In this document: one piece after another, positions 11,002 through 46,462 of the stretch
Numbering within the stretch: the first letter of the stretch is position 1
Layout of the letters: each line of letters begins with the position of its first letter
Source of the DNA: Acidobacteriota bacterium
GTDB taxonomy: Bacteria; Acidobacteriota; Terriglobia; Bryobacterales; Bryobacteraceae
Length of the DNA stretch: 64,000 bases
Assembly (NCBI GenBank): GCA_017304135.1
Contig: JAFLBB010000001.1
Location: 1-64,000 of the forward strand
Direction: 5' to 3'
Notes under the pieces: model-generated
Database searches by the model: none
Told to the model about the DNA's origin: nothing
The model's input: only the letters and a program-made list of their open reading frames with translations
Translations under genes and position numbers: made by a program

Positions 11002-11012
11002 GCGGTGAGTCC

Positions 11013-12681: not shown

Positions 12682-12695
12682 TCGTAGGGGAGAGT

Positions 12696-13148: not shown

Positions 13149-13159
13149 GAGGTCACGAC

Positions 13160-14413
13160 ATGCCGATCGATCAAGTAGAGCTAGGCAAGCGGTTGAAACA
13201 GGCTCGTGAGGCTTGTGCGCTCACGCAGGAAGAGTCCGCCACTGAGATGGGCATGGCGCGGGCCACCATCGCGCAGATCGAGCTCGGGGGCCGATCCGTC
13301 TCCGGAATAGAGCTTTCCAGGTTCGCGCACCTGTATGCCCGCGATATACGCGAGTTCTTGGCTCCGAGCTTTAGCATCTCGGGCCTCGCGGCCGTGCTCT
13401 TCCGATCGGAGGAGGATACCGGTGACGGTGTAAAGGCCGCGCTTCGTGATTGCATTGCCCTTGGGCATCAACTTCGGGATCTCGAAGAACTCCTGGGAAT
13501 CACGAGGAGCACGGGAAACGTCGCTGCCTACCCCTCCGTAACGTTGGGCTCAAAATGGGATGCCATTCAAAGCGGAACGCAGGCTGCGATTGAAGAGCGC
13601 CGCAGGCTTGGATTGGGATCGGCACCGTTGTCCGACCTGCCCGCTCTGCTCGAAGCTCAGGGAATCAGAACGGGTTTGATTTCCATGCCCGCCGGCGTAT
13701 CGGGGCTGATGATCTCGGATCAATCCGTTGGCCTGTTCGTAGTGGTCAACCGCGATCACCCGCCCGTGCGCCAGAGGTTTTCCTGGTGCCACGAGTACGC
13801 TCATTTGCTGCTCGATAGAGCGCAGATCGGACACGTGAGCCGGGAGTCCGAAAGGGCCGATCTTCTTGAGGTAAGGGCGAATGTGTTCGCCGCCACCTTC
13901 CTTATGCCGGAAGATGGCGTGCGACAGTTTGTGGCCGGCTTGGGGAAAGGTAGCGCGAGCCGGTTGCACGCCGAGGTGTTTGACGAGACCGGCGTGGTGC
14001 CAGTTGATAGCCGCACTGCTGGCGGCAGCCAGGATCTTCAAATCTACGACGTCGTCAAGCTCGCCCACCATTTCGGTGTGAGCGTGCTGTCGGCATTGTA
14101 CAGGTTGCTGAACTTGAAGCTTGTTACGGAGAAGCAGTTTCAAGAGATGAAGCAACTGGATGCCGACGGCGTGAGCCGAGCAGTCGGAGAACTGTTGGGC
14201 TTGACCGAGGTCTCCGCCGACGAGAACTTGACGGCGTTCTACCGACGCTATCTTGTTTTGGCTCTGGAAGCTTACCGGCGAGAGAAAATCAGCCATCGAA
14301 AGTTGGTCGAGATCGGCAGCACACTTGGCGTTCAAGCCGGGGAGATCCAGCTGATTCTGGCGAAACTCGGCCTGGACGACGAGCCAGCAGGTGTCTTGCT
14401 GCCGAGCAGATGA
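13160..14413 (+). CDS. XRE HTH regulator fused to ImmA/IrrE metallopeptidase
   Basis: 417 aa from ATG 13160; the longer open frame upstream overlaps the hydrolase gene and is rejected. Residues about 8-62 form an XRE-type helix-turn-helix (RLKQAREACALTQEE, ARATIAQIELGG). Around 195-260 is an ImmA/IrrE zinc peptidase domain with the HExxH motif as HEYAHLLL (H211-H215), followed by EVRANVFAATFLMP. This is the COG2856 arrangement used by phage, ICE and stress regulators, in which the peptidase cleaves or releases a repressor. Here both parts are in one chain, so it may control the divergent CBASS cyclase promoter, its own operon, or the PIN toxin translated from the overlapping next gene. Confidence 0.85.
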   Translation: MPIDQVELGKRLKQAREACALTQEESATEMGMARATIAQIELGGRSVSGIELSRFAHLYARDIREFLAPSFSISGLAAVLFRSEEDTGDGVKAALRDCIALGHQLRDLEELLGITRSTGNVAAYPSVTLGSKWDAIQSGTQAAIEERRRLGLGSAPLSDLPALLEAQGIRTGLISMPAGVSGLMISDQSVGLFVVVNRDHPPVRQRFSWCHEYAHLLLDRAQIGHVSRESERADLLEVRANVFAATFLMPEDGVRQFVAGLGKGSASRLHAEVFDETGVVPVDSRTAGGSQDLQIYDVVKLAHHFGVSVLSALYRLLNLKLVTEKQFQEMKQLDADGVSRAVGELLGLTEVSADENLTAFYRRYLVLALEAYRREKISHRKLVEIGSTLGVQAGEIQLILAKLGLDDEPAGVLLPSR

Positions 14414-15327: not shown

Positions 15328-16788
15328 CTATCCCCGCACCCTCACGTGCTTCCTGCCGGTGCGCGCCACGCATACGCCGTCTTGGATGACGAAGCCTTCG
15401 ACCCAGTGTGTTCCCGCGTATCCGGCAGTCTCCCACCGGTAGTGAGGTCCGTCGCTTTCATAGAAGTCGCCCCTCAGTTGCCCTGCGCGGAAGGCCTCTT
15501 CGCCAGTGTTGACAACCTGCCACTTCACGCTAAACGAACTTCGAACGTTGGTGGAGATTTGGAACCGCAGGGCGGTCTTCTTGGCGATGCCGTAGTCGCC
15601 CAATCCCCCCATCTTCTTCTTTCGGTTAGCGGTATACGTGTAGGCAACGAGCTTAGCGGTATGAGTTAGGCGCTCAGGCCAACAGGGAGCCTGAACATGC
15701 CCAGTGGAGGCGAGCGGCGGAACTTCGAGCGCCTTGGCCGCCACGGGCAGCGAGACGAGCTTTGACCCGTCGAAGTGAAGTCGATCGACAGCGCGCTGGA
15801 CTTCGGCCGCGCCGAGGCTCTTCTTGAGCTGCACGGCCGACTCGTTCAGCGTCTTTTGCTCGACCGCGAGTCCGAAGTCGCGACGTGCGTTTTGCAGCCA
15901 CCGAAAGAAGGCTTCACGTCTTTCCGGCTTCTCGTTCCATTTGTCAGCGAAGTTCTCATCGGGTTCGACCGGGTTTTGGATCACCCAGAGACCGTTCTCA
16001 CAGCGGATGTACCCGTCCAAGTTGCTCAAGATCGCCTGCAGAGCGCCCTGCACATCCAACTCGTTCCTATATGCGTGCGCTGCCAGAGTGGTGATGATGA
16101 TGGACGTCGGCATATTTTTATCGCCAACCTCGAACGAAAGATCGCGATGCCGCTTCAGCACTTGCACGACGCGCTGGAGTGCCGTCCGGACGCTCCACTC
16201 GGGGACATCCTCAACAGAAGCAGAAAGCGCTTCCGCTAGCTTCTGCCGCTTCAGCTCGAAAGCGACCTGCATGCGCCCATGGAACCAGGTGGCGTAATCT
16301 CTTGGATTGCTCTTCTGCCAGTGTCGAAGATCCGTGTCCGTTAACAGCAATCCATTCGGCAACCGGGGTGGGTTTGGGAGACAGGGCAGTACATCCATGT
16401 GGAATCGGGTCTCATAGCTGAGGCACAAGCAGCGCCTCGATTCTCCGATACGTTTGCACAAGTCCTCCCGGCTCTTGAGGCGGTCACCGACGAGATTCTT
16501 TAGATCCTCTTGCGTGGTCTGTTCTTTGCTCTTCACTATCCGGCACACGAGGTCAATGTCGAACTCGCCGTTTCTGCGTATGGGCCGCACAACCGTCCCT
16601 AGACGGAACGAGCCCTGAGGGTAAATCTCGGGGCTGTACTTTTCGAGCGGAGACTCCGAAGCACCGAGCCAGTCGCCAACGTCCTCGTAGTTGAGCACAG
16701 CTTCCTCGTAGAGGGCCGGCGGGATGTCCAGTTCTTCGGCGACCCCTTCGAGTAGGGCGGAGATGTGGGGATTCGTGAATAAGTTCAT
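15328..16788 (-). CDS. CD-NTase with C-terminal AGS-C sensor domain, CBASS 2
   Basis: 486 aa. The cyclase core has PQGSFRLGT (G59-S60), EFDIDLVC (D77, D79) and FHMDVLPC (D132). The helical C-lobe contains LQRVVQVLKRHRD and IQNPVEPDENFADKW, closely paralleling the first CD-NTase in this window. Residues about 385-486 match the adenylyl/guanylyl-and-SMODS C-terminal sensor domain: WQVVNTG, LRGDFYES, ETAGYAGTHWVEGF and GVCVARTG. It overlaps the capV stop by 4 bases, so the pair is translationally coupled. The second messenger it makes would activate CapV. It differs from CD-NTase 1 in lacking an E2 partner. Confidence 0.9.
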   Translation of the reverse strand: MNLFTNPHISALLEGVAEELDIPPALYEEAVLNYEDVGDWLGASESPLEKYSPEIYPQGSFRLGTVVRPIRRNGEFDIDLVCRIVKSKEQTTQEDLKNLVGDRLKSREDLCKRIGESRRCLCLSYETRFHMDVLPCLPNPPRLPNGLLLTDTDLRHWQKSNPRDYATWFHGRMQVAFELKRQKLAEALSASVEDVPEWSVRTALQRVVQVLKRHRDLSFEVGDKNMPTSIIITTLAAHAYRNELDVQGALQAILSNLDGYIRCENGLWVIQNPVEPDENFADKWNEKPERREAFFRWLQNARRDFGLAVEQKTLNESAVQLKKSLGAAEVQRAVDRLHFDGSKLVSLPVAAKALEVPPLASTGHVQAPCWPERLTHTAKLVAYTYTANRKKKMGGLGDYGIAKKTALRFQISTNVRSSFSVKWQVVNTGEEAFRAGQLRGDFYESDGPHYRWETAGYAGTHWVEGFVIQDGVCVARTGRKHVRVRG

Positions 16789-17792
16789 TGTGTGGGCTCC
16801 AGAGTCATGAACGGTTGGAACGGTATGGCAGTGTGCTTGGCGAATCGCTCTGCGAATGTCGGCGCGAAAGCCCGGCCATGGTGTGCCGCCTTCGCGATGA
16901 GGTCCTCAGTTCGATCAATGCCGTCCAGGCAAAACTCGGACGCGGGCACGATCGGGTCAATTCGAAAGTAGTTGCTGTCCCCGACGAGGAATCTTGCTTG
17001 GTTGCAGGCCGCAATGGTCTGTCCCCGCATAACGACCTCGATCGCCTGTTTCGACCATCCGAGCATGCCGCCCGTATCGAACCTTCGGTGACGGGAATTG
17101 AGGGGCTCGGTAGTCCCGATGCTGAGGACGTGTGTTTCCGCGAGCGGAACACGGAGAGTGCCGAACGACTCGGCAAGGGCAACCATTGTCGGGTTGTTGG
17201 CCCAGACGCCTCCATCGATGAGGCGCTGGCCATCCAGACCGCGGAAACTCGGGAAGTAGGTCGGAGCGGCCGAGGTTGCTCGGGCTGCCTTCCAGGCAGG
17301 TACTTTTAGATCGCGTCTGAGCCGTTCATGGTGCGGGGTGCGGAAGATGTACACGTCGTCCTCGCCGAGGTTGTACGAGGGAATCACAAGGCGTTTCGTG
17401 CTCTCCCCAAACCGGCGCTCGCCGAAGCAGGCTCGTAGGGCGGACTCAAGAGGCTCAGCCTCATACTTGTGCCGTAGCCAATGGAGGGTGCACCGAAGCC
17501 AGCCGCTCGCGCCAGGGAAGACCGCCGGACCATGCTCCACGTAGAAATGGACAATCTCTCGTGGCAATAGCCCGAGACCAAGCGCGATAGCGATGATCCC
17601 GCCGGTTGAGGTCCCGGCAATAAGATCAAAGTGATCGGTGATTCTCGTCTTCAAGTCGTCCTCAAGGGCCGCGAGTATAGCCGCCGAAAAGATCCCTTTG
17701 ATGCCGCCACCGTCGAGCGCCAGGATCTGGAATCGATTCCCCGTTGAATCTGCGATGGGTTTGTTCACGTTGTCATCTGGCTTCGTTAGCAT
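16785..17792 (-). CDS. capV: CapV patatin-like phospholipase, CBASS 2 effector
   Basis: 335 aa if started at ATG 17792. Patatin motifs are complete: oxyanion hole LDGGGIKG (residues 27-33), nucleophile elbow GTSTGG with S62, and catalytic Asp in LIDGGVWANNPT (D193). CapV proteins degrade membrane phospholipids when their partner CD-NTase makes its cyclic nucleotide. The start is uncertain: ATG 17792 lies inside the putative operator/-10 element, whereas GTG at 17,768 (codon 9) would lie about 15 bases after the predicted transcription start and keeps the whole catalytic domain. No obvious ribosome site favours either. It follows the HTH/ImmA pair after 30 bases. Confidence 0.92.
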   Translation of the reverse strand: MLTKPDDNVNKPIADSTGNRFQILALDGGGIKGIFSAAILAALEDDLKTRITDHFDLIAGTSTGGIIAIALGLGLLPREIVHFYVEHGPAVFPGASGWLRCTLHWLRHKYEAEPLESALRACFGERRFGESTKRLVIPSYNLGEDDVYIFRTPHHERLRRDLKVPAWKAARATSAAPTYFPSFRGLDGQRLIDGGVWANNPTMVALAESFGTLRVPLAETHVLSIGTTEPLNSRHRRFDTGGMLGWSKQAIEVVMRGQTIAACNQARFLVGDSNYFRIDPIVPASEFCLDGIDRTEDLIAKAAHHGRAFAPTFAERFAKHTAIPFQPFMTLEPTQ

Positions 17793-17804
17793 ACAGTGCG
17801 TACA
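17789..17804 (-). promoter_or_regulatory. Putative operator before capV (copy 2 of 16-bp site)
   Basis: On the minus strand this reads TGTACGCACTGTATGC. It differs at only two of 16 positions from the site before the HTH gene at 18,888-18,903. The TGTATG part can serve as a -10 box for a capV-cyclase promoter. A shared site before regulator and effector is expected for a CapH-type repressor that controls itself and its CBASS genes. Confidence 0.7.
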
Positions 17805-17822
17805 CCTTGGGCAAAAAAAAGC

Positions 17823-18527
17823 TTACAGCATCATCTGGCCGGAACGCTCCACCTTGTAGATCTTTTCAAGCCTGAGTCTCGCGACGACTGGATTGACGTC
17901 GAACACCTCAGCGAGGGCCCTCGCTGAGATTTCTAGACTTTCCTCGGGGAGCAATACTACCCCCAGATTCCCGGCAGCTTCGAGATATGGAATAGCGGCC
18001 TTTCGCACGAGCGGCGCCGGCATGAGGAGCTGACCCATGGCCATGTTCGCCTGGAACTCCCACCATTCGCCGTTGTACGGCCGGGTAGCCCCAGAGTCAG
18101 ATCCGAGATCTCTGCAAAGGACCTTCGGAGCGTTCGGGTCAGAAATGTCGGCGAACAGCGGCAGCGTCCCTGACACCAAAAACAGATGGGCGTGGAGCAG
18201 GCAATGACCTGCTTCGTGGGCGATTGTGCTTCGAAGCCGCCGTTGACCCGCAACTTTCTCATCTTCGTCGAGAGACTTCGCGACATAGACTGCTCGAACG
18301 CCCTTCGGCCCAAACTCCGAGAAGCCGAGTACCCCGTCCTTCATCTCGACGGCCTCCACTGCAACGCCGAATCGCTTTTCTACGAAACGCTCGATGCGGA
18401 TGGGCTCCGGCTCGGTCGGCAACAGCTTGACCGCCCCAAGCGCTTCGAGCACAATCCTTTCGATATCTCCGTCTGTGTAGTGCACCGCTTCTTGAAACGG
18501 GCCTCTGTTGGCTCGGTAAGTCCTCAT
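17823..18527 (-). CDS. ImmA/IrrE-family zinc metallopeptidase (CapP-like)
   Basis: 234 aa, starting one base after the HTH gene stop. The HExxH motif is HEAGHCLLH (H104, E105, H108) with a downstream Glu in WWEFQANMAMGQLLMP that fits the third metal ligand region. In described CBASS loci, CapP is a peptidase of this type that cleaves the repressor CapH in response to damaged or single-stranded DNA and so induces CBASS. Gene order HTH, peptidase, effector, cyclase and the paired operators support the same role here. Sequence identity to characterised CapP cannot be measured here. Confidence 0.85.
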   Translation of the reverse strand: MRTYRANRGPFQEAVHYTDGDIERIVLEALGAVKLLPTEPEPIRIERFVEKRFGVAVEAVEMKDGVLGFSEFGPKGVRAVYVAKSLDEDEKVAGQRRLRSTIAHEAGHCLLHAHLFLVSGTLPLFADISDPNAPKVLCRDLGSDSGATRPYNGEWWEFQANMAMGQLLMPAPLVRKAAIPYLEAAGNLGVVLLPEESLEISARALAEVFDVNPVVARLRLEKIYKVERSGQMML

Positions 18528-27364: not shown

Positions 27365-29422
27365 CTACCGGATCCGAGCGATGGCCTGCTCGACGTCCCT
27401 TTCTTCGATGGGCAGCAGTGCAGTTGCGTGTTCGGGAGTCCTGGCGAGAGCGAAGCGCTTGGCGGCTGTGACAACAGCGGTGATCTCGGCCGGGCTGAGC
27501 CCCCGCACCATTTCCACAAGCTTCGGAGTGGTGAGTTCGGAGGCCAACTGAGTGGGTCCGAAGTTCATCTCCAGGAGGCGACGGTAACCCTCTTCGTCCG
27601 GCAATCCGATCTCGATCTTCTCGCTGAACCGCCCGCCTCGCAGAATTCTAGGGTCGATTCGAGAAAGGTCATTGGTTGTCCCGACCAGAAAGACCTGATG
27701 CTCAGGCCGAAGGTCGCTGATCTCAATGAGGGCTTGCTCCACAAGTTGAATGTCATGCTGGCTCCCATGCCCTGTGACCGCCGGGAACAGCCCATCCATT
27801 TCGTCGAAGAAGAGGATTGACGGCGCATGTTCCCGCGCCCGGGCGAAGACGTCCGTGAGTCTTCTGACCGAACCGCCCACCGCGCCTGACAGGACATCGC
27901 TCGGCGTGATGGCATAGAAGCTACGCTTTGCTTGGGAGGCGATGAGCCGCGCCACCATGGTCTTGCCCGTTCCAGGTTGCCCGACAAGCACCAGGCCGGT
28001 AGGCGCAGGGACCCCGAGTTGCTCCGCAGTGCCAAGCACGAGCAGTCGGAGAATCGCCTTGATGTCGGAAACCACCGGACCCGGAAGGACAACGTCATCC
28101 CAGTTCACAACTTCGACCTGAGGCCGGTCGTTGCCCCCGGATTCCTCGAGCGCTGCGAGAATGTCCTCGTCCGTGACTGGACGCCCGCCGGCCTGCAGGA
28201 TGGTTCGGTCAATCAGTGCCCGCAACCGGGCAGGACTCCACCCGGGCGTCCGCCGCGAAATCTCCGCAATCGCTGTCGCAGCATGAGCACCGGTCTTCAG
28301 CATGCTTGTAAGGATGGCCTCGCGTTCTGCCTGGTTCGGGAGGTCAAGTCTCAACTTCAAATCGAAGCGGCCGTCGCGAATGAGCGTCGGCTCGAGTCCG
28401 TCGAGGCTGTTCGTCGCCGCCATGATCAGCAGGCCATCCAAGGATCGATAGCGGTCGATGGACTGCATCAGTTGGGTAGTGACCGCGTTGTACTCGCGCC
28501 CTCCCCCGCCGGCGTCGGTCCCGATGCCTTGTGGCTGTTTCCGGCTGCCAATCGCATCGATCTCGTCGAGAAACAGAACGGCGGGCCGGTGCAGAGCCGC
28601 CGACTCGAACACGCGGCGGATCTCGCCGGCCGTGGAACCAACTCCGACGCTTAGCAACTCGGGGCACCGCATATGGTAGAAGTTGACCCCGAACTCGCCC
28701 GCTGTGGCCGCAGCCAGTAGATTCTTCCCGGTTCCCTGAGGTCCGTAGAGAAGCACGCCATTGCGGACAACCTGCGGCTTGCCACCAGCAAATCGGTTTG
28801 CCGCCGTCAACCTGATCTCCCGCTTAGCCAGGTCGCCTCCCCCTACGGATGAGAAGGTAATCCGAGGGACATTGCGTTCTGCGTCCACCGGCACACTCGC
28901 TGCGACTTCCGTTCCCGAAGTTGCCGAGATAGTCAGACGGGGATGCTGACGCCTGAAACCAGCCAGCGCCCAGACCGTCATTCCTAACCACACAGCGACG
29001 TTGACCAACGTCAGCACGCTTGACCACGGGCGGAGCCCTGAATACTCCGAAGCAGCCCACGAGATCAGAGAGGCAAGGCTCGCGGCCGTGAAGATCGCCA
29101 CGAGAAGTCTGCCGGTAACGAGAATCAGTCTCGGCACCGGCCTTGGCATCAGCACCAACGTGAGCCAACTCGTCACGAGCGCGAGCGGGTTGCCCGCTTT
29201 CGAGTTGGAGATGGTGAGAACAGCGATTTCAGCAGCGAGCAGCGTAATCGCGATCCCACACCGCCATAGCCACGAAAGGCGTTGTGCTTTAGTCGCTCCC
29301 CGGACCCGCCCCTGCAGAAATGCAGCTTCCTCCGCGAGCCCATCCACACCCCGGCGCAAGCGCTGGCCCACCCAGTACGCCAGCCCCCAATTCCCAGCTT
29401 CGGAGCCGACCGCTCGCGGCAT
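27365..29422 (-). CDS. Membrane-anchored tandem AAA+ ATPase (Cdc48/FtsH-like modules)
   Basis: 685 aa. Membrane helices occupy about 56-72, 80-93, 97-123 and 136-156, followed by two AAA modules. D1 has GPQGTGKNLL (K233, N234) and VLFLDEIDAIGS; D2 has GQPGTGKTMV (K487, T488) and ILFFDEMDGLFP, each followed by an ATN/TTN sensor and GRFD/GRFSEK. In D1 the Walker A Ser/Thr that ligates magnesium is replaced by Asn, so D1 may bind but not hydrolyse ATP well. It begins the downstream T4SS block (105 bases before the pilin gene), where VirB11 would normally supply a second ATPase, and it lies just downstream of the ubiquitin-like operon. Confidence 0.8.
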   Translation of the reverse strand: MPRAVGSEAGNWGLAYWVGQRLRRGVDGLAEEAAFLQGRVRGATKAQRLSWLWRCGIAITLLAAEIAVLTISNSKAGNPLALVTSWLTLVLMPRPVPRLILVTGRLLVAIFTAASLASLISWAASEYSGLRPWSSVLTLVNVAVWLGMTVWALAGFRRQHPRLTISATSGTEVAASVPVDAERNVPRITFSSVGGGDLAKREIRLTAANRFAGGKPQVVRNGVLLYGPQGTGKNLLAAATAGEFGVNFYHMRCPELLSVGVGSTAGEIRRVFESAALHRPAVLFLDEIDAIGSRKQPQGIGTDAGGGGREYNAVTTQLMQSIDRYRSLDGLLIMAATNSLDGLEPTLIRDGRFDLKLRLDLPNQAEREAILTSMLKTGAHAATAIAEISRRTPGWSPARLRALIDRTILQAGGRPVTDEDILAALEESGGNDRPQVEVVNWDDVVLPGPVVSDIKAILRLLVLGTAEQLGVPAPTGLVLVGQPGTGKTMVARLIASQAKRSFYAITPSDVLSGAVGGSVRRLTDVFARAREHAPSILFFDEMDGLFPAVTGHGSQHDIQLVEQALIEISDLRPEHQVFLVGTTNDLSRIDPRILRGGRFSEKIEIGLPDEEGYRRLLEMNFGPTQLASELTTPKLVEMVRGLSPAEITAVVTAAKRFALARTPEHATALLPIEERDVEQAIARIR

Positions 29423-29885: not shown

Positions 29886-30230
29886 CTACCTCTTCGACGA
29901 GGCCCAGCGCACGCACCCCTTTTTGATCCAGAAGTGGCACTGGCAGAGCGTCGTCTGGTGTATCGACGGCTCGATCGAAGGTCGCCGCCAGAAGTCCCAT
30001 TCGATAGACCAGGACGGGCGCCGGGCGGGGTTCAGCGACAACGACAGCAGTGCGCCGCAGCCACCAGGGCATAGCAGACACGCCCACTTCCTGATCGATC
30101 CATCCTGAACGACCACAATCTCGCCGGGCCGTACGTGGCGCGCTTCCGGGTATGTCGTGCAGGTGACCACCAAAAAGTCAAAACGAAGGAGATGGAGCTT
30201 CCGCAGCAATCGGCTGGGAATTGTTGGCAT
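29886..30230 (-). CDS. DUF6527 zinc-binding protein of ubiquitin-like operon
   Basis: 114 aa, starting 3 bases after the JAB-E1 stop. The family pattern is clear: RPGEIVVVQDG, KWACLLCPGGCG (C51, C54, C58), LSLNPARRPSWSI, then LCQCHFWIKKG (C96, C98, H99). The Cys/His set suggests a zinc site. DUF6527 proteins are repeatedly found beside prokaryotic multi-ubiquitin, E2 and E1/JAB genes. The role is unknown; substrate recognition or ligase-like help is a reasonable guess. Confidence 0.8.
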   Translation of the reverse strand: MPTIPSRLLRKLHLLRFDFLVVTCTTYPEARHVRPGEIVVVQDGSIRKWACLLCPGGCGALLSLSLNPARRPSWSIEWDFWRRPSIEPSIHQTTLCQCHFWIKKGCVRWASSKR

Positions 30231-30233
30231 GGG

Positions 30234-31631
30234 TCACCCGATGACATCAAGGAACGGCTGGATGTCGCCCCTGCCCCAGTAGTGCTCCTGTGAGCATAGA
30301 GGGCATCCCGGGAGCTGGGCAACGGCAAGGAAACGGTCGTCTCTTGCGTGGAAGCGGCGCGCACGGTTGGGGATCATGCCGTCTTTACCGTGGAACCCGG
30401 TAAGGGCCGCGATCAACTCGTCGACGGCGACGCACGCCATCTCGGTGGTGAATGTGACGACCGCCGGAGCGGGGTCGCCTGCGCCCATAACGTAGGCCTC
30501 CTGCTTGCGCTTGTGGAACTCGTCAGGATCGGAGCGTTCCAGCGACTCCTCACCTGCGCGGCGCGCGTTGATGACCTTTCCGCACAGCAGACACGGATGC
30601 TCCGGAACGAGTGTCGTGACGCGCCCGAAGATATCATGCCCTCCGGCCACGGGCCGCATCCTCAGACCGACGTCGATCACGGGGATCCCACAGAAATAGG
30701 CCAGGCGGTTCAGGAGGAGTCGTCCGGAGTGGTCGTCGGTGCAACCGAAGATGAAGTCGCACGATTTCAGACCATCCCGCAGTTCCGGCTCACCGGCCCA
30801 TCCGACTACCTTCGCAACGCGAGTGCCGAGGCCCGCAGCCAGGATCTCGCGCTCGGAGATGTCCACCTTATTCGTGGGCGAGGTCGCGTCATTTCGCCGT
30901 GATCCGTGGACCCGATTGAGATTCGTTTCCTCAAGCGTGTCCTTGTCGATCAGCAGGATATGGCCAATCCCTAACCGCGCAAGGAGCAGCGCCGCAGCGC
31001 TTCCCGTGCCGCCGCAGCCCACAACCGCAACCCGCAGGGCGCGGACCTGCGCATTGAAGCTATCGCCGAAAAGTCTGGCCTGGCGATCGAGGTGTGGAGC
31101 GTCATCGGCCGGTTTGCCGCTGCTCCAGGACTGCACCCGCCCACCGACGGATCGTATCGACTGAGCTACCGCAATCTCACCACTGGGCAACCATATCCGT
31201 GCTGCCACTGAGCCATCACCGCCGAGCACGATGCTGGCGAGTCCCCGTGTCCCCTTCAGGCGTGCCGTTCGAGCGAGTTCGGCCTCATTTGCATCGTCCT
31301 GTTCGGAGAAAAAGGCCGAACCGCCGGGATGGGTGTGGACGATGGCGGGCATGAGGTCCACGTTCATGGCCTCCGAAAGGAGCCGCATATACCCGCGCGT
31401 GCTCCACGTGACGTGAAGCGGCGATGAGGAGATGCGATCCGGCTCGGCGACTTCGAGGAAGGAGTGGGAAACGAGGCGTGTCCGCGGCAAGCGGGTCCAA
31501 GGATCTGCGGCGATCACGGATACGCCCAGCTTCAGGTACGCCGACGCCTCGTGCCCCTGCCCCACCTCGAGGAGAGATCGCAGTTGCTGCCAGTGCGGGT
31601 CCAGAATGGTGATGTCGAGTTCCCCGTTCAT
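30234..31631 (-). CDS. JAB deubiquitinase-like fused to E1/ThiF-like activating enzyme
   Basis: 465 aa from ATG 31631, which overlaps the preceding stop by 4 bases; the upstream open frame lies inside that gene. The N-terminal JAB/JAMM domain has E28, H99-T-H101-P and D112, fitting the H-x-H-x10-D zinc protease motif. From about residue 190 an E1-like Rossmann domain has VVGCGGTGSAAALL, then IDKDTLEETNLNR and later CTDDHSGR. Two Cys pairs (CLLCG and CPLCS) likely hold zinc. JAB-E1 fusions are known in prokaryotic ubiquitin-like operons. The E1 would activate the multi-ubiquitin product and JAB would process or remove it. The catalytic E1 cysteine is not obvious by eye. Confidence 0.88.
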   Translation of the reverse strand: MNGELDITILDPHWQQLRSLLEVGQGHEASAYLKLGVSVIAADPWTRLPRTRLVSHSFLEVAEPDRISSSPLHVTWSTRGYMRLLSEAMNVDLMPAIVHTHPGGSAFFSEQDDANEAELARTARLKGTRGLASIVLGGDGSVAARIWLPSGEIAVAQSIRSVGGRVQSWSSGKPADDAPHLDRQARLFGDSFNAQVRALRVAVVGCGGTGSAAALLLARLGIGHILLIDKDTLEETNLNRVHGSRRNDATSPTNKVDISEREILAAGLGTRVAKVVGWAGEPELRDGLKSCDFIFGCTDDHSGRLLLNRLAYFCGIPVIDVGLRMRPVAGGHDIFGRVTTLVPEHPCLLCGKVINARRAGEESLERSDPDEFHKRKQEAYVMGAGDPAPAVVTFTTEMACVAVDELIAALTGFHGKDGMIPNRARRFHARDDRFLAVAQLPGCPLCSQEHYWGRGDIQPFLDVIG

Positions 31632-32545
31632 CGTGCTGTCTCCACAGCACGCCGGAACCGGGCGACCATCGTGTGCAGCCCGTCGACGCCCGGCCGCCAG
31701 TCCGAGGAATGCCGCGACCACCGCTGCCATTGATGGCCATTGAACGTGTGGGCGACGTCGGCCGCCGTGGGATACCTTCCGGACTCCCGCAGTTGAATCC
31801 ACGGGTGGAGGAAGAACATGTCGGGGCAGGCATCCGGGTAGCCGCCGGGCAATATGATTAGGACGTCTGCCTTTTCATGGTTGTACTTCCCGGCCGGAAG
31901 CTCCATCCCGTTCAGGACGACGCCGGAGGTCTGGCCGTCCACGGCGAATTGGTAGGGAATTCCGTGGGTCTCCAGGTATTCCCGATCTCGTATCGGCAGC
32001 CCGTCTGCGCCTTCCGTGGTCTGTTCCAGCACCGTGATGAAGCGCTCGATGCCGGGTTTGGAAAGGTCGATGATGTCGGTCGGGCTGATTTCCCGATCCT
32101 GGCCGCCGCGCACTTCCAGGTAGAGCGCGTAGCTCGGTTGGATGTTGGCGAGGCGCCGCAGAACAGCTCCGCTGATCGGAGCCTTTCCCCATTCCATCGG
32201 GTGGCCGTCGATGGTGAACTTGAAGGAGCGGTCGGTGCGGAAGAAGATGAAGCGCTCGGCGCCAAGGCCGCGGATATCGAACGTCTCGTCGAGGCGCAAG
32301 TCCTCGAAATCGCCGTTCGGCATCAGTGCCACAAGGCTAAACTCTTCCACCGGCCGGGCACCGGCGGCTTCCAGAAACTGCCGGCCGAGAGGCACCGGGT
32401 CAGAGATCTCGACGGGTCGGAATTGAAGGGTCTCGTCGGCGACCTCAATACGGTATGCCTGCGTCGGGTGGGCGTGGTGCCCTCCACCCACTGCGGCGGA
32501 GAGGTCGTCGACATCATGAGTCGGGGGTGTTGTCTTGTCTGTCAT
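31628..32545 (-). CDS. Multi-ubiquitin domain protein fused to E2-like domain
   Basis: 305 aa. Two ubiquitin-like units of the multi-ubiquitin family are visible: about 30-105, and about 106-172 (FKFTIDGHPMEWGKAPISG ... YALYLEVRGG ... IDLSKPGIERFI). They are followed by a prokaryotic E2-like domain at about 195-300 with LPGGYPDACPDMFFLHPWI (C240) and HQWQRWSRHSSDWRPGVDGL. No unit ends in a free di-glycine tail, so activation would require processing or an internal linkage. It is preceded by a GGAGTAA ribosome site 3 bases before ATG 32545 that can be hidden in a hairpin. The JAB-E1 gene is coupled by ATGA overlap. Confidence 0.88.
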   Translation of the reverse strand: MTDKTTPPTHDVDDLSAAVGGGHHAHPTQAYRIEVADETLQFRPVEISDPVPLGRQFLEAAGARPVEEFSLVALMPNGDFEDLRLDETFDIRGLGAERFIFFRTDRSFKFTIDGHPMEWGKAPISGAVLRRLANIQPSYALYLEVRGGQDREISPTDIIDLSKPGIERFITVLEQTTEGADGLPIRDREYLETHGIPYQFAVDGQTSGVVLNGMELPAGKYNHEKADVLIILPGGYPDACPDMFFLHPWIQLRESGRYPTAADVAHTFNGHQWQRWSRHSSDWRPGVDGLHTMVARFRRAVETAR

Positions 32546-32548
32546 GCG

Positions 32549-32593
32549 TTACTCCGTTTCTCGGAAGGCCTCATTGCCTTCCTAATGGAGTAA
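32549..32593 (-). promoter_or_regulatory. Nested hairpin that can hide the ribosome site of the multi-ubiquitin gene
   Basis: In the 75-base gap before the multi-ubiquitin ATG, TTACTCC (32,549-32,555) pairs with GGAGTAA (32,587-32,593), and inside it GGAAGGC (32,563-32,569) pairs with GCCTTCC (32,576-32,582). On the mRNA (minus strand) the proximal outer arm is GGAGUAA, the ribosome site just before the start. Both stems are perfect 7-mers. An operator role is the alternative. Confidence 0.65.
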
Positions 32594-32620
32594 TCGCTGC
32601 TCACCGGCCGAACCGGTAAG

Positions 32621-35600
32621 TCATTCTGAAAAAACTTTGGTGGAAAGAGGACCGTCGGGGAGAACACCGCAAATGAAGAAGGACGGGCATCGCGCGCATG
32701 TCGCAGTCTGCTTAGCGGGAAACCTCCCGGCGCGGATCTTACCCATTACCTCGCCAATCGTTGCCCGCCGGTTCGCCAACGTCCTCGACGTGAACTCCAC
32801 GGGAGTAGTCTCTCCGTCGCTCAGGAATGACAGTTCGACCACATAGCCGCAGTCTTGGGCGTCGGCTGCAAGCCGGAAGGCGGCCGCAGCCAAGCTGTCT
32901 GGGTCCTTCTTTGACCCGTGCCCAGTCTTGACGCGGCGCAAGGTGATCGCGCCCGACGGACTAGAAAGCGCCAAGTCCGGCTTCACCACAATGTCGCCGT
33001 AGTCGGTGGTCAAGCGCAGAACTGGAACCGGGCGACGTCCGCGATTTGCGCGTCCCTGAAGATAGTAGCCAATCAGTCGACGGGCGATCCGCTGGAATTC
33101 ATCGCTATATCCATGATCGGCCGGTCCCATCGCCGTCCACGTCTCCGTGAAATGGGCATCAACATCGGCGGCGGAAGGGGCAGCGGCTGCATCTGCCGAC
33201 AGCCAGTTCACAACCTCCTGCACCGCGTCGTGCATCTTCATGAACGCGGTTTCAGTCCGCCGACCGCCGACCCGCAGAATGTGCGTGTACAGAAACCTCC
33301 GCGGGCAGCGCTCGAAAAGCGCCAGTTGGTAATCCGTGATAGCGACGGCCCCGTCGAAGCGAATCGTCACCGCCCGGTCTTCTGGTTCGGCCGGTAGTCT
33401 GAGTGTGGGTTTGACGCTCTTGGAGAGGACCGTTTGCCCAAGGCGGTCCAGGAACCGGGATCGGGGCCGGCCGTGGCCGTTTGCCTTCTTTGTGGGGGAA
33501 TACAGGAAGAGCCGATCGCGTGCCCGGGAAAGCGCAACGAAAAACAGGCACTCCTGCTCTTCATCATGAGCCTCGTGCTGCGCTACTCTTCCGCGCCCTG
33601 CGGCTCCTTCGATCATGCCGTCTGGCGGTGCTATCCCGGCGCCGAGCCCGCTGGATCGCGGGAGGGTGTCGGAGTTCATGCCGGGAAGGTGAACAACCGG
33701 AAACTCCAGACCCTTGCTTCCGTGCATCGTCAGAAGTCGAACCGCGTCGATACCCTGGGCAGCGGCTGGGAGCTGACGCAATTCGCGCTCGTCGGAGAGC
33801 AGCACGAGTCGACGGATGTTGTTCAGCAGTCTGCTGATTGGATAGCCCGCTTCCCCCCGCCGCGGCCCCCGGACAAAGTTCATGAACTGCCAGATGGCAA
33901 TCCCCCGCGAGCGGATGCGGGTGTCGGCGGCAGTGGCTATCTCGGCGGCCACGCGGCTGCGGTCGAGCAGGATCATTGCGAGGGCTGTCCACGGTGACAC
34001 TGCGGGCTCAATCCCGGCCAGGATCGCGGCCACTTTCTCGAGCCCTGCTTTGCCGGCAGCGGATATCCCTGGGATCTTGTCGATCTGCGTTGTCCATTCG
34101 AGTGCCTTCACTTGCTGATTGCGCAAGTGGGCGAGGACCGCGGAAACGTCTCCCAGTGGCATTGAGAACGGAACTGTAGCTGCGAGGCGGACGAGTCCCA
34201 TCGCTCGCCCATCGACGATGAGCGACAGAAGAGACAGGAGATCGCGGATCTCTTCGCGTTCGAACAGGCTGCCAAGATAGAGCACGGGAACGCCGAGGGC
34301 CTCTAAGCCTACGGCGAACTTTCCGAGGCGGTCCACTCCAGAGCAGAGCAGGGCCTGGTCCCGAAACCCATGGCCGGCATCGCGGAGTTCGAGGATGTTC
34401 TGAGCCACAGCGGCGATTTCGTCGTCCGCGGTTTCCACCGCGATGTACTGGGGCTTGAACCCGCTCAGCCCACGGTCGGATACCAGGGTGACGTCGGTAT
34501 CCGCGGCAACTTTCATGTCAGCTTTCGCGAACTGAACGAAAGTGTCCGTGATCTCCTCGGATGATCGGTAGTTGATGGTGAGCCGACCGCGGGCTCCGCC
34601 AGGGAAATCGTCAACGCCGAAACGCTGAACGTTGAACGCTGAAGCGCCGCGGAAGCGGTAGATGGACTGCTTGGCGTCGCCGACGACCCACAGATTCCGC
34701 CCATCTCCGGCCAAGGCCTTCAGAAGGCGAACGCTGCTCCGGTTCACGTCCTGGAATTCGTCGACGAGGATATGTTCGTACTGCCCCATCAAGTGCGCGC
34801 GAACCTCAGCGTCGTTCTCGCACAGTCGAACGGGCACCGAGACGAGGTCTCCGAAGTCCACGCAACCCAGATTCTTTTTGAGCGCTTCGTATGCAGCGAA
34901 GATGTTGGCCACTTCGCGACTGCGCTCTCCGTCGGTCTGCTCCTCGTCGCCCTTTGCTGACGCCAGCATAGCCTCCGCCAGGCGCCGATACTCTGTTGCG
35001 TCGACGACTTCGTCGTTTGCACGGGAAATCGCGGCCAGGACTTCCCGCAATTTCAGAGATGGGTCCCACAGGTCGTTGAAGTGAACGAGACCCAGCTTCG
35101 GGATTTCGTTTTCCAGCAACTCAATCGCCTCGGCACGGTCCATCAGTCGGGGTTCAGAGGGGAGGCCAAGCCGATCGTGAAACCGCCGGACAAGGTCAAG
35201 ACCGAAAGCGTGGAAAGTTCCGACCCAGATCGCTGCGGCGTCCGGCCGTTTCGAAAGTATCCGGTCCGTCAACTCTGACGCGGCCTTGTTCGAGAAGGTA
35301 AGGACGAGTATGCGCCCTGCGTCGACGCCGGAACTGAGTAGAAACTCAACTCGGCCAACGAGGGTCTGAGTCTTGCCGGTGCCCGGCCCGGCTTCGACGA
35401 GATAGGGTTTTCCGAGGTGGTGCGCGGCGGTTTCCTGGTCGCCATTCAGCGGCTTGGGAGGCTTCGCCTCCGCTTCTTCTCGAGAGACGCTCGGCAGAAG
35501 CAGGGCATCCAGAAGCTGCTGAACGACAACCGGAAACGGTGCAAGGAACCTCGCAGAGATGGCGGACGCTGTCGCTCCCTCTTCAACATGAAGCCGCCGA

Positions 35601-36037
35601 ACCAGGGGTCTCGGAAGGAGAAACTCGCGGGCGAAGATGTCGGCTTGAACTTCTCGACGCTCACGCCGACTGTAATCGACCACCCGCTCTCGGCCGATGG
35701 GCGCGGATTCCGCTGCCCTCACGGGATCGGGATCGACGGCTATTGATTGCTCTCGGTCGCCCCCGAGTTCCACATGCCCAATCTCGTGCGCCACAAGAAA
35801 GGCATTGGTGAACTCGTCGCCTGCATCCTCGTGCAGGATTAGGAGTGCGTCGGGATCGTAAACGGCTCTTCCTCCGCGGAGACGGACGTCACTCCTGGGA
35901 ATCTTCTCAACTTCGATGTCTCGTCTCGTCGCCTCAGCCAGAGCGAAGCTGTACGGCCTCGCGGGATCGTACCCATGAGTAGTTGCCGCTTCGTGGAGTT
36001 CCGCCGCCCGCTGCCGAGCAACTTCAATTCCGGTCAT
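32621..36037 (-). CDS. IrrE peptidase - UvrD/Rep helicase - AddB-like nuclease fusion
   Basis: 1138 aa with three parts. Residues 75-145 are an ImmA/IrrE zinc peptidase (VAHEIGHVELGG, H84-H88). Residues 195-820 are a UvrD-type superfamily 1 helicase with AGPGTGKTQT (K222), LTFSNKAASEL, GTFHAFGLDLV, LVDEFQDVNRS, VVGDAKQSIYRFRGAS, LTINYRSSE, TMHGSKGLEFP and ALSRARDRLFLY. The C-terminus resembles the AddB/RecB-like nuclease with Cys residues for an iron-sulfur cluster (FERCPRRFLY and CARCPSFFIC, last cysteines near 1114-1123). At the nuclease motif, D1021 is followed by LRRVKTG, where the usual acidic residue before K is arginine, so cleavage may be lost. The start overlaps the upstream gene by 14 bases. 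Confidence 0.87.
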   Translation of the reverse strand: MTGIEVARQRAAELHEAATTHGYDPARPYSFALAEATRRDIEVEKIPRSDVRLRGGRAVYDPDALLILHEDAGDEFTNAFLVAHEIGHVELGGDREQSIAVDPDPVRAAESAPIGRERVVDYSRRERREVQADIFAREFLLPRPLVRRLHVEEGATASAISARFLAPFPVVVQQLLDALLLPSVSREEAEAKPPKPLNGDQETAAHHLGKPYLVEAGPGTGKTQTLVGRVEFLLSSGVDAGRILVLTFSNKAASELTDRILSKRPDAAAIWVGTFHAFGLDLVRRFHDRLGLPSEPRLMDRAEAIELLENEIPKLGLVHFNDLWDPSLKLREVLAAISRANDEVVDATEYRRLAEAMLASAKGDEEQTDGERSREVANIFAAYEALKKNLGCVDFGDLVSVPVRLCENDAEVRAHLMGQYEHILVDEFQDVNRSSVRLLKALAGDGRNLWVVGDAKQSIYRFRGASAFNVQRFGVDDFPGGARGRLTINYRSSEEITDTFVQFAKADMKVAADTDVTLVSDRGLSGFKPQYIAVETADDEIAAVAQNILELRDAGHGFRDQALLCSGVDRLGKFAVGLEALGVPVLYLGSLFEREEIRDLLSLLSLIVDGRAMGLVRLAATVPFSMPLGDVSAVLAHLRNQQVKALEWTTQIDKIPGISAAGKAGLEKVAAILAGIEPAVSPWTALAMILLDRSRVAAEIATAADTRIRSRGIAIWQFMNFVRGPRRGEAGYPISRLLNNIRRLVLLSDERELRQLPAAAQGIDAVRLLTMHGSKGLEFPVVHLPGMNSDTLPRSSGLGAGIAPPDGMIEGAAGRGRVAQHEAHDEEQECLFFVALSRARDRLFLYSPTKKANGHGRPRSRFLDRLGQTVLSKSVKPTLRLPAEPEDRAVTIRFDGAVAITDYQLALFERCPRRFLYTHILRVGGRRTETAFMKMHDAVQEVVNWLSADAAAAPSAADVDAHFTETWTAMGPADHGYSDEFQRIARRLIGYYLQGRANRGRRPVPVLRLTTDYGDIVVKPDLALSSPSGAITLRRVKTGHGSKKDPDSLAAAAFRLAADAQDCGYVVELSFLSDGETTPVEFTSRTLANRRATIGEVMGKIRAGRFPAKQTATCARCPSFFICGVLPDGPLSTKVFSE

Positions 36038-36593
36038 CGCCTGAGAGATCCTGCCTCAATTCGGCTTCCTGCGATTCGGTCAGAGGTGTGTTCCGCACCA
36101 ACTCGCTGAAGGTGACCTGATCCGGCACCGAAGGCTTCTGGTCGGCTTTGAAGCTGAGAGCCGCCGCCACTGTGGGCGGCTGTTCCAAGTAAGCCCGGAC
36201 GGCGTCCACGGAAGCCCCAATCGCGTTTGAGAGACGATTGAGGAATCGTACTGGGATCGATGCCGGCACGACCAAGCGGTCTCTGAACGCCACCAGAATA
36301 GAACGTGGAATATTCAAGCTGTTCGCAAGAGCTGCAAAGGTAGCTCCCTTGAAGTCGTTGAAGAGGTTTTCGGGTCGGCGCTCAGCGGCTTCCGCAGTGG
36401 CCGTAACGGGCGCGTCAGTCGGCACCTCGGATTCCCCGAGTTCAGCGACCAGCCGAAGTTCGTGAGAGAGGTCGATCAGCTCCTCTGCGAGTTCGGGATA
36501 CCGCCGGAGGTAGTTCTCGAGTGTTTGCCGGTCGTGTTTGGGTTCGACCGAAAACGCATATAGTACGTCTTCTGCGAGTCTTCGGTCGATCAT
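36024..36593 (-). CDS. Unknown protein following a sigma factor; possible HTH/anti-sigma role
   Basis: 189 aa, overlapping the sigma factor stop by 4 bases and the helicase start by 14. No family is recognised with certainty. Residues 75-145 (FAALANSLNIPRSILVAFRDR ... FLNRLSNAIGASVDAVRAYL) look helical and resemble an XRE-like DNA-binding or adaptor fold. The C-terminus is acidic. No transmembrane helix is present, so a classic membrane anti-sigma factor is excluded. A position directly after an ECF-type sigma gene makes a cytoplasmic regulator plausible. Several operons of this general kind pair an HTH protein with an IrrE peptidase, here fused to the next gene. Confidence 0.6.
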   Translation of the reverse strand: MIDRRLAEDVLYAFSVEPKHDRQTLENYLRRYPELAEELIDLSHELRLVAELGESEVPTDAPVTATAEAAERRPENLFNDFKGATFAALANSLNIPRSILVAFRDRLVVPASIPVRFLNRLSNAIGASVDAVRAYLEQPPTVAAALSFKADQKPSVPDQVTFSELVRNTPLTESQEAELRQDLSGDDRN

Positions 36594-37399
36594 CTGCTTT
36601 CCCCTTCACGCGAGAGAAGCTTGCGGAGCGTGGCGTGCGCACGGTCTCGTCGGTTCCGGACGGTCTTTTCTGCACACCCGAGAACCTTGACCATTGTGAC
36701 CGTGTCTGGGTCGCATGAATCGATAGGAATGTCCTGTAGTTGCAATTCGATCACCCTTCGCTGATCATCCGGCAAAAGATCAATCGCTGCGAGAAGCCGC
36801 TTCCGGTAATCCGACTCTTCAAATTCGTAAACTGGATCGCTCTGCAGTCGAACGAATGCTGCTTCCACTTCGCGCGTGTGCTCGTTGGGCTCATCATTCA
36901 AGTAGAGTGGTGCGTCGCGGTCCGCATCCCGTTTCACCTTCCGTCGGGCGGTCGATCGCGCCTTGGCGATGGCCATGTCGAACCTGACTTCGAAGAAGTC
37001 GAGATGTTCTTCGTAATCAAGGCGATCCCGGCAAAGCATCTGATCAAACTGCGCCAGCACGGCGTCGCGGATATCTGCTGCCGCTGCCGATTCTGAGGCG
37101 CGCCTATCGCCCGGTGCGAAACGCTCGACCGGAGGAAGCGCCTTCAGGATGCGTTGCCTCAAAAACCCGAACAGCGCCTCGAAATGATCACCATTATTGA
37201 GGCGCGCGACTTGCCGCAGTACGTGGAGCAGGCACTCCGAGGGGACATATTTCGGGTCGCCACGGCTCGTAATCGCGCATCGCTGAACGAATTGGTCGAT
37301 GGGTAGCAACAGAAGAGCGTCTAGCGAGGCCTCCACGTTCGGAGGACGTTGATAGATGCTGCCGCCCTCAAGCTTCTTCTTCCTTAGAGGTTCTGCCAA
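36590..37399 (-). CDS. ECF-like sigma-70 family factor heading the ubiquitin-like operon
   Basis: 269 aa. The C-terminal 70 residues show a sigma region 4 (AIDLLPDDQRRVIELQLQ, then VLGCAEKTVRNRRDRAHATLRKLL), and the middle shows region 2-like helices (FDMAIAKARSTARRKVKRD). The N-terminal 90 residues are atypical for ECF factors. It is the first gene of a run of six genes on the minus strand with overlaps or short gaps, so it likely directs transcription of that operon. Its own promoter would lie in the 577-base gap upstream. Confidence 0.75.
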   Translation of the reverse strand: MAEPLRKKKLEGGSIYQRPPNVEASLDALLLLPIDQFVQRCAITSRGDPKYVPSECLLHVLRQVARLNNGDHFEALFGFLRQRILKALPPVERFAPGDRRASESAAAADIRDAVLAQFDQMLCRDRLDYEEHLDFFEVRFDMAIAKARSTARRKVKRDADRDAPLYLNDEPNEHTREVEAAFVRLQSDPVYEFEESDYRKRLLAAIDLLPDDQRRVIELQLQDIPIDSCDPDTVTMVKVLGCAEKTVRNRRDRAHATLRKLLSREGESR

Positions 37400-45142: not shown

Positions 45143-46357
45143 ATGTCAAGACAGCGAGGCGCGATCGTCAGGAAGCACCAGCGGTACTTCGTCAAGTACC
45201 GGACCCCGGAAGGCAAGCAGAAGTGGGAGAGTGGGTTCGATACGAAGGCACAGGCGCAGGCCCGTCTCAACGAACTCCTCCAGGAGATCAATCAGGGCGT
45301 TTACATCGAACCGAAGACCATGACCTTTGGTGAATTCGCCGAGGAGTGGCTTGAAAGTCGAAGCAGCATCCGCGGATCAACCCTCTCGGCCTACGCCTCC
45401 ATCCTCCGTCAGCGCCTCATCCCCTTCTTCGGGAAGACGCACCTTTCTGAGATCTCGTTCGAGCAGGTGCGACGTTTCGTTGGGGAACTCAGTGCCGAGG
45501 TTTCTCCGAAGACGGTTCATAACACGCTGATCCTGCTGCGAGTCATCCTCACGGGAAAGCGCGGGGCGAGCGCAATCAAGAGAGGATTCCTCCGCAGTGA
45601 CCCCACCAAAGGCGTGGAGCTTCCTTCCCGGCTGCATCGGAAGATCCGGCCACTTTCGGTTGAGACCGTCTGGAAGCTGATTGACGCCGCAGAAGAGTTG
45701 GGTGAACTGCGACGATCGCTGGTGTTTCTTGATGCCTACACCGGGCTTCGGCGGAACGAGATTCTGGCACTTCATTTCAGTGACATAGATTGGCGGAGCC
45801 ACGAACTCCTCGTGCAGCGTGCGATCTCAAAACGGGTCTCGGACGACGCGGCCCGCAAGTGGATCTGGGTTCTCGGACCTCCGAAGTCCGCGAAGTCGAT
45901 TCGAAGGGTGGCCTTGCCTGAGGACGTGAGTGATTTGCTCGCAAGGCTTCGCCGGAAGGCTCAAGACAAGGAGGGCCTCATCTTCCGCCGCAACGACGGG
46001 TCCATGATCGATCCCGACTACTTTGATGAATGGCTCTTCGCGCCAGTCGTGAAGAGGGCGGAGCTCTCTGGCATCCGCTTCCACGATCTGAGGCATTTCT
46101 TCGCTTCGATGCTGATCGCACAGGGAGAGAGCCCGAAGTACGTCTGCGACCAACTGGGCCACGCCACCATCCAGATCACCTTCGACACCTACGGACACCT
46201 GTTCCCACAGTCACGGAAGGAAGCCGCAGCCAAGCTGCAGGACGCGATGCGCCAGGGCAAAGATAAAGCGAATGGTAGAAGTTTGGTAGAAGGTTCTAAC
46301 AAAACCGGGGCAAAACGTTTCAGGAGCAGGAAGCCGGAAAGTGGCGGAAACGATTGA
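45143..46357 (+). CDS. int: Tyrosine recombinase/integrase
   Basis: 404 aa. An N-terminal AP2-like arm-binding segment (RTPEGKQKWESGFDTKAQAQARL) and SAM-like core-binding domain are followed by the catalytic domain with the tyrosine recombinase set: R in YTGLRRNEILAL, H-x-x-R in HDLRHFFASML, H in LGHATIQITFDTY, and the nucleophile Tyr in TYGHLF. It ends 28 bases from the 3' end of a tRNA gene, so the tRNA 3' part is the probable attachment site. Confidence 0.93.
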   Translation: MSRQRGAIVRKHQRYFVKYRTPEGKQKWESGFDTKAQAQARLNELLQEINQGVYIEPKTMTFGEFAEEWLESRSSIRGSTLSAYASILRQRLIPFFGKTHLSEISFEQVRRFVGELSAEVSPKTVHNTLILLRVILTGKRGASAIKRGFLRSDPTKGVELPSRLHRKIRPLSVETVWKLIDAAEELGELRRSLVFLDAYTGLRRNEILALHFSDIDWRSHELLVQRAISKRVSDDAARKWIWVLGPPKSAKSIRRVALPEDVSDLLARLRRKAQDKEGLIFRRNDGSMIDPDYFDEWLFAPVVKRAELSGIRFHDLRHFFASMLIAQGESPKYVCDQLGHATIQITFDTYGHLFPQSRKEAAAKLQDAMRQGKDKANGRSLVEGSNKTGAKRFRSRKPESGGND

Positions 46358-46385
46358 GGGAGAGGCGCTTACGGGCGGAGGAGGT

Positions 46386-46462
<77 letters not shown>

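What the first reader, a model, noticed from the sequence alone, without database searches (positions are those of the whole stretch)
29886..37399. Sigma-factor-headed ubiquitin-like operon with IrrE-helicase-nuclease fusion, embedded in T4SS genes
Six minus-strand genes, with overlaps or a single 75-base gap, encode a sigma factor, an unknown protein, an IrrE-UvrD-nuclease fusion, multi-ubiquitin-E2, JAB-E1 and DUF6527. Bacterial ubiquitin-like defence systems are known (E1, E2, JAB, Ubl), but a dedicated sigma factor and a protease-helicase-nuclease in the same operon is unusual. This is the strongest candidate in the window for an undescribed system: regulated expression, DNA recognition and processing, and target marking.
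Basis: partly seen in the sequence, partly recalled or inferred. Interest (0 to 1): 0.85.

Follow-up and report, generated by a model that had tools for sequence, protein, structure and literature searches.

The report
Sigma-factor switch heading ubiquitin-like operon
A mobile element in a soil bacterium carries a known kind of bacterial ubiquitin-like operon headed by three genes that look like a self-contained alarm (a protease-helicase sensor, a DNA-binding target and a private sigma factor), and the apparent private promoter of that sigma factor sits exactly in front of the ubiquitin-like genes in relatives from three bacterial phyla.

Summary
The six-gene minus-strand operon is real. Its last three genes (multi-ubiquitin-E2, JAB-E1, DUF6527) are a Bub operon, a known kind. 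The first three (sigma-like, XRE-HTH-like, IrrE-UvrD-PDDEXK fusion) form a cassette kept in order in Acidobacteriota, Pseudomonadota and Cyanobacteriota. Of 30 helicase relatives 23 sit with Bub, 4 with the phage-defence operon Bil, 3 with neither: a module that swaps payloads. The one real gap holds TT(A/T)CCG-N17-(C/T)GATT(R), spacer always 17, in 25/25 co-directional cassette loci and in no Bub locus without the cassette. The exact motif occurs twice in the 6.5-Mb genome, both in this operon; the second copy, inside the sigma gene, is kept by codon choice. Peptidase, helicase and Fe-S cysteine residues are invariant (30/30), but the nuclease lacks its D/E-x-K motif. Best reading: a DNA-damage-sensing protease-helicase cleaves the HTH protein and frees the sigma factor, which switches on Bub. 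Trigger, cleavage and defence are inferred. The operon is cargo of an integrative conjugative element at tRNA-Met.

The parts
36590..37399 (-). SIG: ECF-like sigma factor, 269 aa; sigma region 4 at about residues 198-262
   Evidence: TIGR02937 2e-6; family profile vs FliA 3e-4; low-confidence AF2 model whose best hits are ECF sigmas, prob up to 0.97
36781..36809 (-). site 1: TTACCG-N17-CGATTG inside the SIG gene (codons of the YRxxLxxAI stretch)
   Evidence: exact match; T before TAC-CGR kept by codon choice in 24 of 25 sigma genes although the residue before Tyr varies
36024..36593 (-). HTH: 189-aa protein; helical N-terminal part, XRE-like HTH (about 85-136), disordered tail with conserved K149/K153/P154, C-terminal helices
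   Evidence: family alignment; AF2 pLDDT 68, XRE/SinR-like matches (prob 0.82 but E>0.5), DdrO weak
32621..36037 (-). HEL: IrrE/CapP-like M78 peptidase (HEIGH 84-88) + UvrD/Rep SF1 helicase + degenerate PD-(D/E)XK domain with Fe-S type cysteines C911, C1114, C1117, C1123
   Evidence: Pfam; PADLOC capP 3e-11 on the N-terminal part; conservation over 30 homologues
32591..32619 (-). site 2: TTACCGGTTCGGCCGGTGAGCAGCGATTA, proposed promoter (-35 TTACCG, 17-base spacer, -10 CGATTA) in front of the Bub genes
32546..32590 (-). 5' leader with a hairpin whose outer stem pairs the Shine-Dalgarno region (z = -3.3)
31628..32545 (-). multi-ubiquitin (2 repeats) fused to E2 (C240); TTEG (G179) matches the C-terminus of free BubA in cyanobacteria
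   Evidence: Pfam
30234..31631 (-). JAB (H99, H101, D112) - E1/ThiF, 465 aa
   Evidence: Pfam
29886..30230 (-). DUF6527, 114 aa
   Evidence: Pfam 2e-21

Best explanation
The operon is a Bub ubiquitin-like conjugation pathway placed under a self-contained, DNA-damage-responsive sigma-factor switch, carried as cargo by an integrative conjugative element. Shown by sequence: the three upstream genes are a conserved, transferable cassette, and a bipartite promoter-like site with a fixed 17-base spacer lies directly in front of the payload. Inferred: HEL engages damaged or single-stranded DNA through its helicase and Fe-S DNA-binding domain; this activates its IrrE/CapP-like peptidase; the peptidase cleaves the XRE-like HTH protein, which otherwise restrains the sigma factor (as anti-sigma) or the promoter (as repressor); the freed sigma factor directs RNA polymerase to site 2 (Bub) and site 1 (more HTH-HEL), or to its own gene in two distant relatives. 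Bub then conjugates its ubiquitin-like protein to targets, and JAB/DUF6527 process or remove it. The leader hairpin over the Shine-Dalgarno region probably adds a translational brake.
For: Conserved order: 21 plasmid regions with the cassette were inspected; 19 have Bub beside it, 1 has Bil, 1 is cut by the record start. SIG and HTH each hit 75-77 plasmid records, largely the genera of the HEL hits. The same cassette heads BilABCD in Bradyrhizobium (PADLOC 5e-44 to 4e-146) and Bil-like operons in three Acidobacteriota. Motif: 25/25 gaps, spacer exactly 17, shuffles 0.0; 44 matches at spacer 17 against at most 2 at any other spacer; absent from the Bub loci without the cassette, L023-L027 and L113-L121. 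In whole genomes exact TTACCG-N17-CGATTR is found only in this operon in three genomes (2 sites each in G000, G397, G664), control 0. The two sites of one locus share -35 variants (TTTCCGG in L019, TTACCGAC in L036/L037, TTACCGGATTC in L022, TTTCCGGG in L108). In L108 and L111 site 1 lies upstream of the sigma gene, as in autoregulated sigmas. In Robbsia the HEL cassette is divergent from Bub, where HTH + IrrE (CapH/CapP-like) genes sit in other Bub loci. HExxH, E129/E138, helicase motifs and Fe-S cysteines are 30/30, while the D/E-x-K acid is absent in 30/30. CapP and PprI (IrrE) are activated by ssDNA and cleave HTH repressors (PMC13373217; PMC10904395).
Against: No experiment. The HTH protein has no PDB or Pfam homologue and its model is of moderate confidence, so its role as peptidase substrate or anti-sigma is inferred. 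Sigma region 2 is not recognised by sequence. A clear site 2 is missing in L107, L109 and L112/L146. Robbsia lacks both the motif and a recognisable SIG. That DNA damage is the trigger rests on analogy with CapP, PprI and CapK. The 25 motif loci include close relatives, so they are not 25 independent events.
Confidence: 0.62

Rival explanations
1. The bipartite site is an operator for the HTH protein rather than a sigma promoter: HTH represses Bub directly and HEL cleaves it (plain CapH/CapP logic), with SIG as a cofactor.
For: XRE-like HTH fold hint; CapH/CapP is among the usual Bub controllers (PMC13373217); Robbsia lacks a recognisable SIG and carries a palindrome between the divergent units.
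Against: The site is asymmetric with a fixed 17-base spacer and keeps one orientation and, in most loci, a distance of about 50 nt to the payload start codon, as a sigma promoter does; XRE repressors usually bind palindromes (general knowledge).
Confidence: 0.2
2. The cassette is itself an effector or defence system (protease-helicase acting on invading DNA) that merely travels with Bub and Bil.
For: Three distant relatives lack ubiquitin-like genes (L107, L109, L110); GajB- and RecB-like helicase similarity.
Against: Nuclease motif lost; the promoter motif faces the payload; in Robbsia the cassette takes the CapH/CapP position; near relatives are always linked to Bub or Bil.
Confidence: 0.13
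3. The six proteins form one machine in which Bub modifies HEL or DNA-bound targets.
For: Tight overlaps and shared mobility.
Against: The payload is exchanged between two Bub types and Bil while the cassette stays.
Confidence: 0.05

Closest known systems
Bub (bacterial ubiquitination-like) operons (PMC13373217, citing Gong 2025 and Ye 2026)
   Same: Multi-ubiquitin, Prok-E2_E, JAB-ThiF E1 and DUF6527 in one operon
   Different: Head module is sigma + HTH + IrrE-helicase, not the CapW, CapH+CapP or CapK+CapS controllers listed in that paper (219 and 59 of 544 operons)
CapH+CapP controllers, and DdrO/PprI (IrrE)
   Same: M78 peptidase related to CapP (PADLOC 3e-11) next to an HTH-type protein, at the head of an immune-type operon
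   Different: Peptidase fused to a UvrD helicase and a dead nuclease; a sigma factor and its apparent promoter added, so activation rather than simple derepression; same transcription direction in most loci
Bil (BilABCD)
   Same: The same cassette heads Bil in Bradyrhizobium and Bil-like operons in three Acidobacteriota
   Different: The window carries Bub, not Bil
AddAB / AdnAB / RecBCD helicase-nucleases
   Same: UvrD-type motor followed by a RecB-fold domain with four conserved cysteines (C-x2-C-x5-C at the end); weak AdnA match
   Different: D/E-x-K active site lost; N-terminal IrrE peptidase; no partner subunit seen

Membership tests
Bub operon | Multi-ubiquitin, E2, JAB, E1 (ThiF) and DUF6527 genes together | tested here: met
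   All above Pfam cut-offs
Bub operon | Catalytic E2 cysteine, JAMM ligands, ubiquitin C-terminal glycine | tested here: met
   C240; H99-x-H101-x10-D112; TTEG at 176-179 as in free cyanobacterial BubA. Activity not tested
CapH+CapP controller | M78 peptidase with HExxH related to CapP | tested here: met
   PADLOC capP 3e-11; HExxH 30/30
CapH+CapP controller | Two-gene unit of small peptidase and HTH repressor | tested here: not met
   Peptidase is part of an 1138-aa helicase fusion; a third gene (SIG) is present
CapH+CapP controller | ssDNA-activated cleavage of the HTH protein | not testable with these tools
   Needs protein chemistry
ECF-type sigma factor | Sigma region 4 similarity | tested here: met
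ECF-type sigma factor | Recognisable region 2 | tested here: inconclusive
   No sequence match to region 2; AF2 model of low confidence, ECF hits prob up to 0.97 but none with E below 0.001
ECF-type sigma factor | Cognate bipartite promoter with fixed spacer at target genes | tested here: met
   25/25 gaps with a 17-base spacer; use by SIG not shown
Bil system | BilABCD genes | tested here: not met
   Not in the window; present behind the same cassette in L030
Active RecB-type nuclease | D ... D/E-x-K motif | tested here: not met
   Acid at K-2 in 0/30, K in 7/30

The most novel reading that the evidence does not exclude
A previously undescribed class of immune-pathway controller: a helicase-fused, DNA-sensing protease that activates a private sigma factor with its own promoter, mobile across phyla and reused in front of two different ubiquitin-like systems (Bub, Bil) and occasionally other genes (a LodA/LodB-like oxidase operon), with a second promoter embedded in the sigma gene and a leader that masks the ribosome-binding site.
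Probability: 0.55. Interest if true: 0.85.

Novelty: new variant of a known kind. Interest (0 to 1): 0.76.

Why it matters
How bacterial ubiquitin-like and other costly defence pathways are kept off until needed is an open question. Known controllers (CapW, CapH+CapP, CapK+CapS) relieve repression. This cassette suggests a further route, proteolysis-triggered activation by a private sigma factor, and provides a short DNA signature that predicts its regulon and can be tested with one reporter. It may also account for part of the Bub operons not assigned to a known controller in PMC13373217.

Tried and rejected
Nuclease processing of DNA: rejected on active-site loss. Phage-encoded system: no E2 match in 50,697 phage records; IMG/VR scans gave only generic UvrD helicases or short fragments. 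HTH profile vs PDB: no match, so HTH rests on an AF2 model and alignment. Nuclease profile vs PDB: only weak AdnA and Endonuclease III Fe-S matches. Consensus sigma-70 scan: nothing above chance. Sites in the 200 nt upstream of SIG: none in the near relatives. MAFFT alignment of the leader was unfit for covariation counts; per-sequence folding with shuffles was used instead. L109, L110 and L112 were first read as stand-alone: L112 proved to be followed by a Bil-like operon, L110 by a small unknown gene with a site-2-like sequence, L109 by nothing clear. Ye 2026, Gong 2025 and Lau 2022 are not in the held library, so prior mention of this module there cannot be excluded; four paper searches found none.

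Full report
Check. Corrections: JAB-E1 is 465 aa from the ATG at 31631 (ATGA overlap), E1 and DUF6527 are 3 nt apart, and the only real gap is the 75 nt between HEL and the ubiquitin-E2 gene.

What the second half is. Multi_ubiq + Prok-E2_E, Prok-JAB + ThiF and DUF6527 match what PMC13373217 calls Bub; DUF6527 as part of Bub follows from the gene neighbourhoods seen here and general knowledge. E2 C240, JAMM H99/H101/D112 and a TTEG ubiquitin terminus (G179, the same ending as free BubA in Synechocystis and Oscillatoria) are present. PMC13373217 reports 544 Bub operons, 219 with CapW or CapH+CapP and 59 with CapK+CapS, and says Bub has not been shown to protect against phage.

What the first half is. 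SIG, HTH and HEL recur as a block in the same order on plasmids of Sinorhizobium, Agrobacterium, Rhizobium, Mesorhizobium, Shinella, Bradyrhizobium, Cereibacter, Roseovarius, Acinetobacter, Klebsiella and Leptolyngbya, and in genomes of Hyphomicrobium and Acidobacteriota. SIG hits 77 plasmid records and HTH 75; 84 records hold HEL over at least 80% of its length. Two Bub types follow the block: the long type of the window, and a short type with three Multi_ubiq repeats, DUF6791-ThiF and DUF6527. In Bradyrhizobium the block heads BilABCD (PADLOC 2e-47, 5e-44, 1e-60, 4e-146), and in three Acidobacteriota (L108, L111, L112+L146) Bil-like operons (for L146 by reading the ORFs: Ubl ending in G, JAMM and E1 motifs). 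In L107 it is followed by a LodA/LodB-like operon (LodA_N 3e-74), in L110 by a small unknown gene, in L109 by nothing clear. On a tree of 30 HEL proteins (quick method, long branches at the base) at least 8 payload changes are needed, with L112 still scored as without payload. In Robbsia HEL with an HTH-like gene is divergent from Bub, the position taken by HTH + IrrE genes in Methylomagnum, Oscillatoria and Synechocystis Bub loci.

Residues. Over 30 HEL homologues down to about 35% identity, H84, E85, H88, E129 and E138 of the peptidase, the tested residues of Walker A, Walker B and motifs III-VI of the helicase, and cysteines 911, 1114, 1117 and 1123 are invariant. In the nuclease fold the acid two before the lysine is never D/E and the lysine is K in only 7/30. 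So protease and motor are kept, cutting is not. The C-x2-C-x5-C spacing is that of AddB-type Fe-S nucleases (general knowledge). The N-terminal part matches PADLOC capP at 3e-11.

The promoter. In 25/25 cassette loci in which all genes read in one direction, the sequence between HEL and the payload (in L022 overlapping the end of HEL) holds TT(A/T)CCG-N17-(C/T)GATT(A/G); in 22 of them it ends 45-58 nt before the payload start, and 32 or 88 nt in the other three. Dinucleotide shuffles gave 0.0 such gaps on average, and over the same loci 44 matches have spacer 17 against at most 2 at any other spacer from 12 to 23. Bub loci without the cassette have none (L023-L027, L113-L121). Exact TTACCG-N17-CGATTR occurs twice in the window's 6.5-Mb genome, twice in G397 (9.4 Mb) and twice in G664 (4.8 Mb), always in this operon; the reversed control gives 0. 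In G396 four of ten matches lie in its two cassettes, the other six being one repeated sequence. The second copy lies in the SIG gene over the codons of YRxxLxxAI. There the codon before Tyr/Phe ends in T in 22 of the 23 genes printed, although its residue is A, D, N, R, G, L, V, Y, F or S; Tyr/Phe is TAC/TTC, and Ile is preceded by GCG (TCG once) and is ATT in most, ATC in four (L035 and L106, missed by that script, match). Third-position T is 21% in these genes, so this is selection on DNA. The -35 variants agree between the two sites of one locus (L019, L022, L036/L037, L108). In L108 and L111 the first site is upstream of SIG instead, as for an autoregulated sigma. A 17-base spacer, fixed orientation and asymmetry fit a sigma promoter. 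That SIG is the factor is inferred from linkage, its region 4 and ECF-like structure hits.

Leader. The 45-60 nt between site 2 and the start codon fold better than shuffles (mean z -2.6, 21/25 below -1.5), and in most loci the outer stem pairs the Shine-Dalgarno region while its sequence changes (CTCC/GGAG, CCTTAG/CTAAGG, TCCTTGTG/CATAAGGA). Formal covariation was not obtained.

Model and limits. DNA damage activating the peptidase is by analogy with CapP and PprI (PMC13373217, PMC10904395). HTH as the substrate rests on its place, an XRE-like model and IrrE biology. Not shown: cleavage, sigma activity, conjugation, defence.

Setting. Integrase 45143-46357 abuts tRNA-Met 46386-46462; T4SS genes flank the operon; CBASS and other defence genes lie upstream. 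About 21 kb of the same element recurs at about 91% identity in another Acidobacterium. The element and the plasmid occurrences make horizontal spread the natural explanation of the distribution.

Noticed in passing
45143-46462: Tyrosine integrase directly beside tRNA-Met; with the T4SS genes this marks the left part of the window as an integrative conjugative element (att repeats not sought).
   Followed up: partly
15328-18527: CBASS: cyclase (PADLOC 9e-154), patatin phospholipase (8e-104) and a capP-like IrrE gene (9e-8) on the same element.
   Followed up: partly
169-14413: Further defence-like genes: DpdE/DrmD-like helicase, DrmMI/type IIG methylase, LmuB-like, HNH + SAVED effector, XRE-IrrE (RmrA/capP-like).
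   Followed up: partly
27365-29422: Tandem AAA+ protein (NCBIfam anti-phage ATPase IteA 1e-54, far below its cut-off) just downstream of the operon, same strand; function unknown.
   Followed up: no
L107:2909-6318: The same sigma-HTH-helicase block heads a LodA/LodB-like (amino-acid oxidase) operon plus a small helical protein that looks similar to one behind the block in L110.
   Followed up: partly
L032, L033, L127, L129 downstream of DUF6527: Short-type Bub operons on rhizobial plasmids are often followed by a PD-(D/E)XK protein and a second UvrD helicase (AddAB-like pair).
   Followed up: no
window 32546-32590 and equivalents in relatives: Leader hairpin masking the Shine-Dalgarno region, with changing stem sequence.
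   Followed up: partly
L028: On a Klebsiella plasmid the cassette + Bub lies beside Tn7-like transposition genes (TnsD-like).
   Followed up: no
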